DNA of 40,381 nt, taken from IMG/VR virus record IMGVR_UViG_3300021437_000047, positions 1 through 40,381 of that record; one strand, written 5' to 3'. Shown piece after piece: positions 18,934-40,381 of this stretch (the first letter of the stretch is position 1; each line of letters opens with the position of its first letter). The translations under genes and the position numbers were made by a program. The notes under the pieces are model-generated. The model had not been told where the DNA came from, made no database searches, and saw only the letters and a program-made list of their open reading frames with translations. The DNA comes from a virus.

Positions 18934-19488
18934 ATGCGTACTCCCGAAGACATCGAGACCGATCCCGATGGCCTGATCCGCCTTGGCGCCGTGGCGTCGG
19001 TGGATCTGGCGGCTGCGCGCTGCACCGTGAAATTCGACGATGAGACCGAAACCCCGCCGCTGCGCTGGATCGAACCGCGCATGGGCAAGACCCGCTGCTG
19101 GTCACCGCCGAGCGAGGGTGAGCAGGTCGTGCTGCTCTGCCCGGCCGGCGAGCTGGGCGGCGCGGTGGTCCTGCGCGGCCTGGTCTGCGATGCCTTCGCC
19201 GCCCCCGATGACCGCAAGATCGATCTGGTGAAGTTCGAGGACGGCGCGACGATCAGCTACGATGCCGATGCGCACGAACTCTCGATCACCCTGCCCGCCG
19301 GCGCTACCACCCAGCTGGTTTCCGACGGCGGCATCACGATCCCCGGCGACATCACGCTGGAGGGCGATGTCGACATGACCGGCACGCTCACCGCCAGCGG
19401 CGACGTGGTCGCCAGCGGCATCAGCCTCAATTCCCACACCCACGGCAGCGTGCGCTCCGGTTCCGACAGTTCGGGAGGCCCCCAATGA
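18934..19488 (+). CDS. V: baseplate spike protein V
   Basis: The 184-residue protein is the membrane-piercing spike at the tail tip; P2 gpV has 211 residues. An OB-fold N-terminal domain (LGAVASVDLAAARCTVKF, WWSPPSEGEQV-like WSPPSEGEQVVLLCP) leads to a repeat beta-helix (GGITIPGDITLEGDVDMTGT). The C-terminal HTHGSV supplies the HxH iron site of the needle. The start at 18934 fits the operator spacing; an ATG at 18916 gives six more residues. Confidence 0.92.
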   Translation: MRTPEDIETDPDGLIRLGAVASVDLAAARCTVKFDDETETPPLRWIEPRMGKTRCWSPPSEGEQVVLLCPAGELGGAVVLRGLVCDAFAAPDDRKIDLVKFEDGATISYDADAHELSITLPAGATTQLVSDGGITIPGDITLEGDVDMTGTLTASGDVVASGISLNSHTHGSVRSGSDSSGGPQ

Positions 19489-29255: not shown

Positions 29256-31967
29256 ATGGATGCCCACAGCGCCACTACCTTCAAGTCCAAGATCCTGGAC
29301 GAACTGAAGCGCAAATACCGCTTTAGGAAGATTTCCGGGAAGTGGCTGCAGGAAGGCCAGTGCCCCGAGTGCAACGAGTGGGAGCTTTACGCCGCCGCCG
29401 AGGACCCCAAGGTGGTCACCTGCGGCCGGTCGAACAATTGCGGCTATCAGGCATCGGTCCGCGACGTGCTGTCGGACCTGTTCGAGGACTGGTCGGAGCG
29501 CTTCAAGCCCACCCCCGAAGATCCCAACGCCACCGCCGACGCCTATCTGCGCGGCCGTGGCCTCGATCTTACCGGCCTGCGCGGGCACTTCTTCCAGGAG
29601 AACTATTTCGACCGCGAACGCAACGCCGGCACCGCCACCGTGCGCTTTCCGCTGCCCGGCGGATCATGGTGGGAACGCCTGATCGATCGCCCCGGTCGCT
29701 TCGACAAGAAGGCCCGGTTCAAATACGGCGGCAGCTGGGCGGGCCACTGCTGGGCGCACCCGGACGACGGTTTCGACCAGCTCGCCACGATGGACGAAAT
29801 CTGGATCGCCGAGGGCATCTTCGATTGCCTCGCCCTGCGGCAGAACTTCCAGCGGCTCGAAAAGGGCGGACGCAAGACCCGGGCCACCGCCGTTTCGGCG
29901 ATGACGGTCAACGTCTGGCCCGAACACTTTCTCGGCGCGCTCCGGCAGGCCATCGCCGCCAGCAAGGACCCCAAGCACCGCCCGAAACTGGTCTTTGCCT
30001 TCGATGTCGGCGCCGCCGGGGTCAAATTCACCCGCAAATTCGTCGACCAGGCGCAGCGCGAAGGCTGGGATGCCGCCGCCGCCCAGGTGCGCCCCGATGG
30101 TGAGGGCACCAAGCTTGACTGGAACGATCTGTGGCTGCGCCAGCAGGACCACAAGGGCGATGAGGGCAAAGGCCCGCTCTCCGCCGAAAGCCTCGATGAC
30201 TATCTGTGGAACGGCGACATCACCTGCGCGAAAACCGCGCAGCAGAAGGCCCGCCTGATCTACAAGCGCAAGGCGCTGGCCTCTTTCGACTTCCGCTTCG
30301 AAAACCGGCTCTACTTCGCCCGGTCAAAGCCCGATGAGGACGGCGGCAGCGAGCTGATCGTCGATGAAGTCGCCAACTGCGCCTTCCGGGTGCTCTACCG
30401 CGAACGCGACGACGCGACGGATGAGACCAACTATTTCCTCGAGATCGCTTTCCCCAATGCGATCCCCACCGCCAAGGCCCGCTTTTCCGCCTCCTGCTGC
30501 GCCACCAGCGGCGAATTCAAGAAGCGCCTCTTCGCCTTCGGCGGCATCTGGGCCGGATCGCAGGAGCAGCTTGACCGCCTGATGCGCGGCCAGACCCGCT
30601 ACCTCAAGACCGTCGAGCCGATCCACTTCACCGGATACAGCCAGGCCCATGATGCCTGGGTGCTGGGCGATCTGGCGGTGCGCGATGGCCGCGTGATCAA
30701 GATCGGCAGCGAGAAGTATTTCGACTTCGGCAAATCGGGTGTGAAGCTACGCACCGAAGAACGGCTGCTGAACATCGACTGGAATCCGGACGCAGTCGAC
30801 CTGTCATGGATCCGCGACGTCTGGCTGGCCTGGGGGGAGCGCGGGGTGATTAGCCTCGCCTATTTCACCATGAGCCTGTTCGCGGTCCAGATCCGCTGGA
30901 AGCAGGGATCGCTCGGTTTCCTCGAAATCTACGGCGAGCCTGGGTCGGGCAAGTCGACAATGACCGAGTTCCTCTGGCACCTGCTCGGCCGGCCAAAGCA
31001 CGAAGGCTTCGATCCCAACAAGGCGACCAACGCCGGCATCGCCCGCAATTTCCTCAAGGTATCAGGCCTGCCGATCGGCCTGATTGAAAGTGGCCGCGAT
31101 CAGGACCGGCAGAGCCACCAAGGCAAGTTCGACATGACCGAGTTGCTGACCCTCTTCAATGGTCGCTCGCCGCGTGTCTTGGGCGTCAAATCAGGTGGCA
31201 CGGAAACCTTCGAACCGCCGTTCCTCGGCACGGTCTACCTGATGCAGAACAACCCGATCGATGCGATGCCAGCGGTGCTCGAGCGCATCATGAGCCTGCG
31301 GATTGACAAGAAGAACTGGGGTCCGGATTCACAGCCCGCCGCCAGGCGCCTGCACCAGATCGACCGGGCCGTTGCCTCACGCTGGATCGTCCACGTCACC
31401 CGGAAGGCGTCGAGCTGGCTCACCTGCTATTTCGATCGCTTCGCCCACCATGAAGAGGCGATGCCAGCGCGGGTCTTCGAAGCGACGAAGGCCACTCTGA
31501 CCAATGATCGCATTATCCTGTGCCACAGCCAGCTGGCCGCTGCCGTCGATACCCTTCGCGACCTGTTCCCCAAATCGGTGCTGCCCGACGAATGGATCGA
31601 CAAGGCTATTCAGGCGGTCGACCGCATGGCGCTGGAGCGCCAGCAGGCCAGTGCGACCGAACACCCGGTGGTCGAGAAGTTCTGGGGCATCTTCGATTAC
31701 CTCTGCGCCATCGAGCAGGACGATCCGCAGTACCCGGTCAACCTGCACCGCTCCAGCACTGACCTGATCGCCGTCAACATGCCGCGCTTCATGGAAGCGT
31801 GCCGGGCGCGCGGCCAGCAGCCGCCGACCGAAGACGAACTGCGCAAGCATCTGAAGGGCTCGAAGGGCCGGAAATACATCGGCCAGCGCACCGTCAATTC
31901 GCCCTCCGGCAAGGGCTTCCACTGCTGGGTCTTCCAGCGCCCGCTTTCCGAACAAACGATCATCTGA
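29256..31967 (+). CDS. P4-alpha-like primase-helicase
   Basis: The 903-residue protein has a zinc finger (C36, C39, C56, C62), a Toprim-like primase domain (E186 in WIAEGIFD, FAFDVGAAG around 250, KLDWNDL at 287-292), and a superfamily-3-like helicase domain. Walker A is GEPGSGKST at about 559-567; IGLIESGRDQDRQSHQGKF and VYLMQNNPIDAMPAVLERIM follow. P4 alpha combines primase, helicase and origin binding in one chain, and this architecture matches. The second Toprim acidic residue of the DxD motif appears to be G252. It probably acts at the iteron array at 39936-40180. Confidence 0.87.
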   Translation: MDAHSATTFKSKILDELKRKYRFRKISGKWLQEGQCPECNEWELYAAAEDPKVVTCGRSNNCGYQASVRDVLSDLFEDWSERFKPTPEDPNATADAYLRGRGLDLTGLRGHFFQENYFDRERNAGTATVRFPLPGGSWWERLIDRPGRFDKKARFKYGGSWAGHCWAHPDDGFDQLATMDEIWIAEGIFDCLALRQNFQRLEKGGRKTRATAVSAMTVNVWPEHFLGALRQAIAASKDPKHRPKLVFAFDVGAAGVKFTRKFVDQAQREGWDAAAAQVRPDGEGTKLDWNDLWLRQQDHKGDEGKGPLSAESLDDYLWNGDITCAKTAQQKARLIYKRKALASFDFRFENRLYFARSKPDEDGGSELIVDEVANCAFRVLYRERDDATDETNYFLEIAFPNAIPTAKARFSASCCATSGEFKKRLFAFGGIWAGSQEQLDRLMRGQTRYLKTVEPIHFTGYSQAHDAWVLGDLAVRDGRVIKIGSEKYFDFGKSGVKLRTEERLLNIDWNPDAVDLSWIRDVWLAWGERGVISLAYFTMSLFAVQIRWKQGSLGFLEIYGEPGSGKSTMTEFLWHLLGRPKHEGFDPNKATNAGIARNFLKVSGLPIGLIESGRDQDRQSHQGKFDMTELLTLFNGRSPRVLGVKSGGTETFEPPFLGTVYLMQNNPIDAMPAVLERIMSLRIDKKNWGPDSQPAARRLHQIDRAVASRWIVHVTRKASSWLTCYFDRFAHHEEAMPARVFEATKATLTNDRIILCHSQLAAAVDTLRDLFPKSVLPDEWIDKAIQAVDRMALERQQASATEHPVVEKFWGIFDYLCAIEQDDPQYPVNLHRSSTDLIAVNMPRFMEACRARGQQPPTEDELRKHLKGSKGRKYIGQRTVNSPSGKGFHCWVFQRPLSEQTII

Positions 31968-38564: not shown

Positions 38565-39638
38565 ATGACTGTCTGGAAAAGCCCGAAGTCGCCCTATTTC
38601 CAATTCGACTTCCAGTTTCGTGGTCGCCGGTTTCACGGATCCACCGGCTGCACATCGCGCCGCGCGGCAGAGGCGTTCGAGGCGCGCGAACGGCACAAGG
38701 CCGCGCTGCCGGATCCCGCACGCCCGCCGATCACGATGGACGAAGCCGCCGGCCTCTATGCCGAACACGCCGAGCGCCTGCCGAGCTGGCCGACGATCGA
38801 TTACATCACCCGCGCCCTGGTCAAGGGCATCGGCGCCGGTATGCTGCTCTCTGCCGTCACCCAGCGCGACCTGCAGGTCTACTTCGCCCGCCGCCGGAAT
38901 GGGCGCAGCAATGCCACCGTCAATCGCGAGATCGAGAACGCCCGCGCCATCTGGCGCCGCGCCGATCGCACGCGCTTCGACATCGGCGAGATGCCGGACT
39001 GGGCGGCTCTGCGGCTGAAGGTGGCGGAAAAGCCGCCGCGCGAACTATCCGCCACCGATGAGGAAGAGGCGCTGTTCGAGGCGATGAGCGAAGACGTGCG
39101 GCCGGCCTTCCGCTTCCTGCTGCTGTCGGGATGGCGGCGCGGTGAGGTTGCCGGCCTGCGCTGGTCGGACCTCGATCTGCCGAACCGCGAAGCCGTGACC
39201 CTGATCAAGGGCGGCAACACCGTGCGCCGGCCGTTGACCACGGCGATGGTCGCCATGATCGCCAACCAGCCGAAGGTCGGCCCTTTCGTCTTCACCTATA
39301 TCTGCCGCCAGTCGCGCGCCAAGCGCCGGAAGGGCCAGCGCTACCCGCTCACGCCCAGCCTGCTGCGCGATCGCTGGCAGGAAGCGCTGGCGGCGGCCGA
39401 GATCACCGATCTGCGGATCCACGACATCCGCCACACCACCGGCACCCGCATCGTCCGCGCGACCGGCAATCTCGCCGCCGCGAAGGAAGCCCTGCGCCAC
39501 ACCAACCTGAAAACGACCCTGCGCTATGCCCACGTCCTGGGCGATGATGTGCGGAATGCGCTGGAGGCCGCCGCCCAAAGTGCATCGGAGTCCCGGAATA
39601 GTCCCGGACGGAAATCCCGCACCACCCGGAAACCCTAG
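38565..39638 (+). CDS. int: tyrosine integrase
   Basis: The 357-residue recombinase has an N-terminal arm-binding part (WKSPKSPYFQFDFQFRGRRF), a core-binding domain (GLYAEHAERLPSWPTIDYIT) and the catalytic domain. Catalytic residues are R191 (SGWRRGEV), K215 (LIKGGN), H286 and R289 (IHDIRHT), H312 (LRHTN) and Y321 (LRYAH). It ends 35 bp from the tRNA-derived attP core, and the left arm repeat lies inside its last codons. Probably expressed from the end of the early operon with the excisionase. Confidence 0.94.
   Translation: MTVWKSPKSPYFQFDFQFRGRRFHGSTGCTSRRAAEAFEARERHKAALPDPARPPITMDEAAGLYAEHAERLPSWPTIDYITRALVKGIGAGMLLSAVTQRDLQVYFARRRNGRSNATVNREIENARAIWRRADRTRFDIGEMPDWAALRLKVAEKPPRELSATDEEEALFEAMSEDVRPAFRFLLLSGWRRGEVAGLRWSDLDLPNREAVTLIKGGNTVRRPLTTAMVAMIANQPKVGPFVFTYICRQSRAKRRKGQRYPLTPSLLRDRWQEALAAAEITDLRIHDIRHTTGTRIVRATGNLAAAKEALRHTNLKTTLRYAHVLGDDVRNALEAAAQSASESRNSPGRKSRTTRKP
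39588..39608. repeat. attP arm: integrase arm site, left copy
   Basis: Two tandem copies of AGTCCCGGAAT/AGTCCCGGA (11-bp period) lie inside the 3' end of int. The same 21 bases recur at 39809-39829 on the other side of the attP core. Paired direct repeats flanking a core are the usual layout for integrase arm-type sites. Confidence 0.7.
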
Positions 39639-39808: not shown

Positions 39809-39829
39809 GAGTCCCGGAATAGTCCCGGA
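39809..39829. repeat. attP arm: integrase arm site, right copy
   Basis: An exact second copy of the paired 11-bp AGTCCCGGAAT repeat, 221 bp from the first and on the opposite side of the tRNA-derived core. The stretch 39640-40381 has no convincing gene; it holds attP, the iteron origin and the cos end. Confidence 0.7.
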
Positions 39830-39935
39830 ATGAATTTGCGCGCCCTGAGATCACAGAGTGATGACCAGGGCGAATTTTTCGTGCGTGCGCACCACGCGTA
39901 GGGCGACATTTCAGGAAGCCACCATGCGTGGGAAC

Positions 39936-40180
39936 TTCCTAACATTCCTAACATTGGCGGTTTTCTGCGGGTTTCGGGCCTAACATCCGACCTAACATTG
40001 ACCTTACATCCTCATGCACATCGAGCCTTACCAATGTGATAATTAAAAACGTTATAATTCAATAATGTAAGGTTAGAGGGTGTGTTGATGTTAGGTTCGA
40101 TAAGGAACAGAGCCTGATATTTTTGCATCGTGTTTTCAATGCTTTGCTACCGATCCGGGCACCAGATTAGGAATGTTAGA
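39936..40180. other. ori: putative replication origin with iterons and AT-rich core
   Basis: Direct copies of CCTAACATT or close variants lie at 39938, 39947, 39979, 39991 and 40002. Inverted copies lie at 40064-40072, 40087-40095 and 40172-40180. Between the two groups is a strongly AT-rich segment (about 40038-40066, containing AATTAAAAACGTTATAATT), unusual in this GC-rich genome and suited to strand opening. Iterons plus an AT-rich core in a gene-free region match an origin for the alpha-like primase-helicase. The alternative is a regulatory region. Confidence 0.68.
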
Positions 40181-40362
40181 CACTTCCCATGGGCACCCTA
40201 CGCCTGGAGTTTCAGGGCGGCGCGAAATCATGCCTGTCCCGATCAGCGATAGATCGCGTCAGCAGTTCGCCATTGTGAATCGAGGCCGCATGGCCGTTCG
40301 CCGAGGCATCTGGGTGCGTCAGGCTGGCCGGGGATGCGAAAAAAAGAGGCACGAAGCGGGCA

Positions 40363-40381
40363 GGCGGGGCGTGGGGGCAAG
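40363..40381. repeat. cos: right cos end (19-bp terminal direct repeat)
   Basis: Exact second copy of the 19-bp sequence at 2-20. In the circular phage there would be a single copy, joining the origin region to the methylase end of the terminase operon. Confidence 0.8.

What the first reader, a model, noticed from the sequence alone, without database searches (positions are those of the whole stretch)
39936..40180. Iteron array flanking an AT-rich core near the cos end
At least five direct and three inverted copies of CCTAACATT-like 9-mers bracket a short AT-rich stretch in an otherwise GC-rich, gene-free region. Two of the copies are exactly tandem. The arrangement resembles origins where a replication protein binds repeats and opens the adjacent AT DNA.
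Basis: seen in the sequence. Interest (0 to 1): 0.68.

Follow-up and report, generated by a model that had tools for sequence, protein, structure and literature searches.

The report
Satellite-type replication origin in P2-like phage
A short stretch of inward-pointing 9-letter repeats around an AT-rich core in this P2-like phage of (probably) sphingomonad bacteria looks like the place where the phage starts copying its DNA, and it is built on the same plan as the origins of phage satellites (PICIs/SaPIs) rather than like phage P2's own origin.

Summary
Five direct and three inverted CCTAACATT-like 9-mers (39938-40180) flank an AT-rich core. All five exact CCTAACAT copies in the record lie in this array, and it is the record's strongest repeat cluster (log10p -15.2; next -5.4; best of 100 shuffles -6.3). 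It sits between attP (a tRNA-Val fragment behind int) and a P2-type 19-nt cos.

Phages with the same primase (phrog_1139) carry the same anatomy with other iteron sequences. In phi3 and PaBSM the array lies directly downstream of the primase gene. Over 31 phages iteron similarity follows primase identity (Mantel rho 0.63), not integrase (-0.01), and not terminase once primase is controlled (-0.14). The phages examined that have the P2 A protein lack such arrays. The predicted primase is a DnaG-type Toprim domain joined to a half that aligns with SaPIbov1 Rep and SCCmec Cch (Z 16.6 and 15.3). The same scan, run on the functionally tested origin of E. coli PICI EcCICFT073, finds the same layout.

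[quoted passage not shown] No binding or replication was tested.

The parts
39938..39955 (+). left outer iteron pair: CCTAACATT CCTAACATT, exactly tandem (9 bp)
   Evidence: 9-bp tandem outer pairs recur at array ends in relatives
39956..39976 (+). spacer block GGCGGTTTTCTGCGGGTTTC, nearly unchanged in records G005 and G008 although the iterons around it differ
39979..40010 (+). left inner iterons: CCTAACATC (39979), CCTAACATT (39991), CCTTACATC (40002), 11-12 bp apart
40034..40066 (.). AT-rich core, proposed melting site (AT 0.87 at 40040-40069)
40064..40095 (-). right inner iterons, inverted: CCTTACATT (40064-40072) and CCTAACATC (40087-40095)
40134..40146 (+). IHF-like site TTTCAATGCTTTG (1 mismatch to WATCAANNNNTTR, consensus recalled) between right inner and right outer iterons
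   Evidence: perfect matches enriched across the 33 arrays
40163..40180 (-). right outer pair, inverted: TCTAACATT (40172-40180) and a degenerate tandem unit CCTAATCTG (40163-40171)
39929..40189 (.). whole array; its two ends form a 23-nt inverted repeat (39929-39951 / 40167-40189, 87%)
29256..31967 (+). proposed initiator, phrog_1139 primase, 903 aa: cysteine-rich N-terminus, DnaG-like Toprim domain (about 83-350), SaPIbov1-Rep/Cch-like half (343-903) ending in a predicted winged-helix-like domain
38565..39638 (+). tyrosine integrase gene (context)
39588..39608 (+). paired AGTCCCGGA units, proposed left integrase arm site (a different repeat from the iterons)
   Evidence: same arrangement in L018
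39671..39716 (-). attP core: tRNA-Val fragment
   Evidence: complete tRNA-Val at the same place in relative L033
39809..39829 (+). paired AGTCCCGGA units, proposed right integrase arm site
40363..40381 (+). cos: 19-nt GGCGGGGCGTGGGGGCAAG, repeated at 2-20
   Evidence: P2-type 19-nt ends quoted in PMC3931495

Best explanation
39929-40189 is the phage's replication origin. The phage's fused primase-helicase (29256-31967) binds the 9-bp iterons through its C-terminal domain. Two inverted groups of iterons (each an outer 9-bp tandem pair plus inner units one helical turn apart) place two initiator rings head to head over the AT-rich core, possibly helped by an IHF bend between inner and outer units. 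The rings melt the core and self-load as helicases, and the Toprim domain primes, giving theta-type replication. SHOWN by computation: the array, its conserved anatomy, its linkage to the primase and not to int or terminase, its absence in the phages examined that have the P2 A protein, and the initiator's predicted fold. INFERRED: binding by this protein, melting, helicase loading, direction of replication, IHF.
For: (1) Significance: log10p -15.2 against -6.3 for the best of 100 shuffles. (2) Conserved in kind, not letters: of 10 other named phages with this primase that I fetched (of 21 records), 8 have a cluster below log10p -9. (3) Position follows the primase: directly downstream of it in phi3 and PaBSM, between the attP side and cos in the window, Dobby, Halomonas 4908 and others. 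(4) Mantel over 31 phages: iteron~primase 0.632 (p 0.0005), ~terminase 0.215, ~integrase -0.005; primase given terminase 0.618; terminase given primase -0.135. (5) Controls with the A protein: 0 of 80 loci below -9; P2 -5.4, 186 -7.5, Mannheimia -6.1, Shewanella -5.5. (6) 0 of 40 primase records, and not the window, have Phage_GPA. (7) Model residues 343-903 align with SaPIbov1 Rep (Z 16.6, 420 aligned) and Cch (Z 15.3), residues 83-350 with DnaG (Z about 13). (8) Positive control: the functionally tested EcCICFT073 ori scores -18.0 with the same outer 9-bp pairs, gaps and inner spacing. (9) Perfect IHF-like sites in 11 of 33 arrays against 0.77 expected, shuffle maximum 4.
Against: No binding or replication experiment. 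In the window the array is 8 kb from the primase gene, whereas PICI origins lie directly 3' of rep. GC skew does not point to the arrays once detrended (10 genomes). No DnaA box in the 7 arrays checked. Some relatives gave no clear array: PfPro -6.5 and BpuM-ZY1 -5.5; 21 of 38 prophage far ends were not below -7, of which 13 stop under 2 kb past the portal gene, 5 had no portal match and 3 had 2 kb or more. The helicase stretch 590-680 is modelled badly. The C-terminal domain alone has only weak fold matches, and iterons do not track it better than the whole protein (partial 0.064, p 0.27). Another gene that travels with the primase could be the binder. The 80 A-protein loci are all close relatives of 186, so they count as few independent controls. 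Sequence alone links the protein to EcCICFT073 Pri-Rep only at the P-loop.
Confidence: 0.88

Rival explanations
1. The repeats are terminase binding sites beside cos (like lambda cosB) and serve packaging.
For: In the window the array lies about 180 bp from cos, and in several relatives it also lies next to a cos-like sequence.
Against: In phi3, PaBSM and ESSI2 the array lies kilobases from the portal-terminase end. Phages with related terminases but the A protein lack it. Iteron similarity given primase does not follow terminase (-0.135).
Confidence: 0.03
2. The repeats are integrase arm sites or excisionase (Cox/Apl-like) sites belonging to attP.
For: The array starts about 220 bp from the attP core; phage 186 has clustered Int and Apl sites there (annotation).
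Against: A separate repeat (paired AGTCCCGGA) already flanks the attP core in the window and in L018. Integrase identity is unrelated to iteron similarity (-0.005). In phi3 and PaBSM the array is on the far side of the primase gene from int.
Confidence: 0.03
3. The array is a regulatory or maintenance site bound by the same initiator or by a linked protein (copy-control locus like P4 crr, handcuffing site, partition site), with the origin elsewhere.
For: All the linkage evidence fits any site bound by a protein of the replication module; P4 (recalled) has both ori and crr.
Against: No second iteron cluster is found in the window; the AT-rich core flanked by inverted groups is what an origin needs; the same layout in EcCICFT073 is functionally an origin.
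Confidence: 0.05
4. Operator array of a repressor, or chance repeats.
For: Clustered inverted repeats can be operators (general knowledge); no call gave specific support.
Against: It lies between two convergent gene ends, not upstream of a gene; chance is excluded by shuffles.
Confidence: 0.01

Closest known systems
PICI/SaPI replication origin with (sometimes fused) Pri-Rep, e.g. EcCICFT073, SaPIbov1
   Same: [quoted passage not shown] in EcCICFT073 outer 9-bp tandem pairs and 9-11 bp inner spacing as here; initiator half aligns in fold with SaPIbov1 Rep.
   Different: Carried by a P2-like tailed phage with its own virion genes, not a satellite; in the window 8 kb from the initiator gene, next to attP and cos; primase domain is DnaG-type Toprim, whereas SaPIbov1 and SaPI5 primases are AEP (PMC7581432 passage); iteron sequence differs.
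SCCmec Cch / Cch2 helicases and the repeats downstream of cch2
   Same: Cch aligns with residues 343-902 (Z 15.3); Cch2 binds direct repeats downstream of its gene through its C-terminal domain (PMC7581432).
   Different: Fewer repeats; different element; no fused Toprim.
Phage P2 / 186 origin in gene A (rolling circle)
   Same: Related terminase and cos type.
   Different: No Phage_GPA gene in the window; an iteron array rather than an origin inside the replication gene (186 annotation).
Satellite P4 alpha with ori and crr (recalled)
   Same: Primase-helicase initiator with Toprim and iterons (recalled).
   Different: P4-type iterons are not clustered in the window; P4 alpha itself was not compared here.

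Membership tests
[quoted passage not shown]
   same scan on EcCICFT073
PICI/SaPI-type replication origin | located directly 3' of the rep gene | tested here: not met
   window array is 8 kb from the primase gene; the feature is met in phi3 and PaBSM
PICI/SaPI-type replication origin | cognate Rep is a self-loading helicase of SaPI Rep/Cch fold | tested here: met
   (predicted fold only; helicase core partly poorly modelled; helicase activity untested)
PICI/SaPI-type replication origin | Rep binds the iterons and drives autonomous replication | not testable with these tools
   needs binding and plasmid assays
PICI (the element) | satellite without its own full set of virion genes, helper dependent | tested here: not met
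   the record encodes a P2-type terminase, a GPD-type tail protein and cos, so it is not filed as a PICI
P2 rolling-circle replicon | Phage_GPA replication protein | tested here: not met
   (0 of 1); 0 of 40 related records
P4 ori/crr | clusters of GGTGAACA-type iterons (recalled) | tested here: not met
   4 scattered copies, none in the array
integrase attP arm sites | repeat tracks the integrase | tested here: not met
   rho -0.005; 378 pairs
cosB terminase sites | repeat tracks terminase and stays beside cos | tested here: not met
   partial -0.135; array away from portal-terminase in phi3, PaBSM and ESSI2

The most novel reading that the evidence does not exclude
A large part of the P2-like phage family has given up rolling-circle replication for a satellite-type replicon: a DnaG-type Toprim primase fused to a SaPIbov1-Rep-like self-loading helicase, with a dyad iteron origin of fixed anatomy (outer 9-bp tandem pairs, 32- or 65-bp gaps, helical-phase inner units, IHF-like bend) whose iteron letters co-evolve with the initiator and whose place in the genome is mobile (beside the gene, or between attP and cos). 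The origin plan reported as found in PICIs and in no other known bacterial replicon would then be shared by full phages and satellites, pointing to exchange of whole replicons between them.
Probability: 0.6. Interest if true: 0.72.

Novelty: new variant of a known kind. Interest (0 to 1): 0.6.

Why it matters
It assigns an origin and an initiator to a widespread set of P2-like phages for which I found neither described (paper searches; open-access library only). It links phage and satellite replicons directly, and it offers a natural series of about 30 cognate initiator-iteron pairs from which DNA recognition by self-loading helicases could be worked out.

Tried and rejected
GC skew: the raw cumulative minimum at 40032 looked like support, but the whole record drifts one way with coding strand; after detrending, 10 genomes show no link to the array. 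Not used.

The array near the primase in prophage loci: of 80 primase loci only 1 had a cluster below -9. I take this to be because in prophages the array lies at the other end of the element; 38 far ends were then fetched. 17 of 38 are below -7 and 9 of 38 below -9. By space beyond the portal gene: 2 kb or more, 7 of 10 below -7; less, 1 of 14; portal not found, 9 of 14. Of the IMG records fetched whole, G007, G009, G010 and G017 end 0-1.1 kb past the portal gene and cannot show the array. G016 (-5.4, no better than its background) and G018 (-6.6 elsewhere) have an AT-rich island in the right place with degenerate copies seen by eye.

The two phages with a different primase family (phrog_5629 for AP3; AP3 -9.7, KS5 -6.2) also have repeats downstream of the primase; they were left out of the 31-phage comparison. 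L227 and G016 were kept in it although their motifs are poorly defined.

DnaA boxes: none in 7 arrays. C-terminal domain alone: no strong fold match; the weak rows include oriT-binding TcpK (pCW3) and iteron-binding RepE54. SaPI Rep did not appear there, which proves nothing. Pfam DUF927 did not appear for 6 primases even at E 5.

Full report
THE THING. The window is a 40,381-bp virus record in which bases 2-20 and the last 19 bases are the same, GGCGGGGCGTGGGGGCAAG. That matches in kind the 19-nt GC-rich cohesive ends of P2-type phages quoted in the Smp131 paper (PMC3931495, passages). Before cos lie an integrase gene (38565-39638), a tRNA-Val fragment that marks attP (full tRNA-Val in relative L033), flanked on each side by a pair of AGTCCCGGA units that look like integrase arms, and then the array. 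It holds five direct and three inverted copies of CCTAACATT or a near form, 39938-40180, with an AT-rich core at 40034-40066. Its outermost parts form a 23-nt inverted repeat.

IS IT MORE THAN CHANCE. Yes. A scan for 9-mers (one mismatch, both strands, 300-bp windows, order-2 background) gives log10p -15.2 for the array and -5.4 for the runner-up. The best value in 100 block-shuffled windows is -6.3. All five exact CCTAACAT are in the array; one-mismatch copies over the whole window are not more than chance.

RELATIVES. The only replication protein I recognise is a 903-aa primase (29256-31967), phrog_1139 at E 3.7e-253. 21 phage records carry a relative. I scanned 10 named ones whole: Mae-JY29 -15.1, Dobby -16.5, Halomonas 4908 -10.8, Smp131 -9.9, ESSI2 -15.5, phi3 -18.9, 2F_1 -10.8, PaBSM -13.5; PfPro -6.5 and BpuM-ZY1 -5.5 gave nothing clear, the latter record ending at its integrase gene. 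The repeats differ in letters (for instance GGTAATT, TGGAATATT, ACCGGAACA, ACCTTCCAC, TGTGATGGT). In phi3 and PaBSM the array is directly downstream of the primase gene; in ESSI2 it is 8 kb from the portal gene; in the window, Dobby, Mae-JY29, Halomonas 4908, G005 and G008 it lies on the cos side of attP or int.

ANATOMY. Motif extraction shows a repeated plan: a tandem pair of iterons exactly 9 bp apart at the outer ends, pointing inward; a gap of 32 bp (window group) or 65-66 bp (many others); inner units 10-12 bp apart; an AT-rich centre. Of 31 phage arrays counted, 11 show the 9-bp pair at both ends in inverted orientation and 13 at one end; the EcCICFT073 control also shows both (12 and 13 of 32 including the control; AP3 and KS5 left out). 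In the window the left pair is perfect and the right pair has one good and one degenerate unit. IHF-like sites (perfect WATCAANNNNTTR, recalled) occur in 11 of 33 arrays against 0.77 in shuffles, maximum 4 over 200 shuffles; related arrays are not independent. The window has only one-mismatch sites.

WHAT IT BELONGS TO. Over 31 phages (465 pairs), iteron similarity follows primase identity (0.632, p 0.0005), weakly terminase (0.215) and not integrase (-0.005; 378 pairs); with primase held constant the terminase link is gone (-0.135). 114 pairs share a primase (over 55%) but not an integrase (under 35%), and their iterons are alike (median 9.2 against 4.6 for 223 pairs with primase under 42%). 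Phages with the P2 A protein are controls: P2, 186, Mannheimia 2256AP1 and Shewanella M16-3 have no cluster beyond -7.5, and 0 of 80 loci around A genes pass -9 (1 passes -8, 4 pass -7; all are relatives of 186). None of 40 primase records, nor the window, has Phage_GPA.

THE INITIATOR. The AlphaFold model (pLDDT 76.8, residues 590-680 poor) matches in the PDB first SaPIbov1 Rep (E 3.2e-7) and then DnaG. In the second look, residues 343-903 align with SaPIbov1 Rep (Z 16.6, rmsd 8.0, 420 aligned) and SCCmec Cch (Z 15.3, rmsd 7.8, 422 aligned), and residues 83-350 with DnaG RNA polymerase domains (Z about 13). The last 60 residues are predicted as strand-helix-helix-strand-strand, like a winged helix; the C-terminal domain alone has only weak fold matches.

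KNOWN SYSTEMS. [quoted passage not shown] Cch is related to SaPIbov1 Rep; SaPIbov1 and SaPI5 primases are of the AEP type. [quoted passage not shown] I ran the same scan on EcCICFT073: log10p -18.0 directly after pri-rep, with 9-bp outer pairs at 19010/19019 and 19219/19228 and inner units at 9-11 bp spacing. This is the plan of the phage arrays. The proteins are remote: only a P-loop match by BLASTP, and EcCICFT073 Pri-Rep is phrog_864 with a weak phrog_1139 match.

VERDICT. An origin of replication bound by the fused primase-helicase, working like a PICI/SaPI origin, is the best explanation (0.88). I do not call the phage a PICI: it has virion genes and cos. Prior print: the passages I saw of the Smp131 and Burkholderia KS5/KS14/KL3 papers note only a primase-like or zinc-finger CHC2 protein, and that replication genes differ from P2; none of the ten paper searches listed an origin for these phages, but the library is open access only. 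Hosts of the nearest prophages found in named genomes are Novosphingobium and a sphingomonad bin, 52-54% primase identity.

Noticed in passing
window 39588-39608 and 39809-39829; L018 21023-21042 and 21244-21263: Paired AGTCCCGGA / AGTCCCGAC units on either side of the tRNA-Val attP core, conserved between phages with related integrases: likely integrase arm sites.
   Followed up: partly
L022 12269-12310: Microcystis phage Mae-JY29 record holds the 19-nt cos-like sequence twice in tandem in its middle, probably an assembly product of end-repaired cohesive ends.
   Followed up: no
L056 34418-34655 and L055 1604-1805: Burkholderia phages AP3 and KS5, with a different Toprim primase family, also have short repeat clusters (TTTTGCCCC; GACTAGTGG) downstream of the primase: perhaps a second such origin type.
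   Followed up: partly
window 39956-39976; L033, L038: Spacer GGCGGTTTTCTGCGGGTTTC inside the array is better conserved than the iterons around it in the window, G005 and G008.
   Followed up: partly
L054 21179-21338 (phage 186): TAAGTTCCA repeated with about 39-bp period in orf69 near attP of phage 186, the strongest cluster among the whole A-protein control genomes.
   Followed up: no
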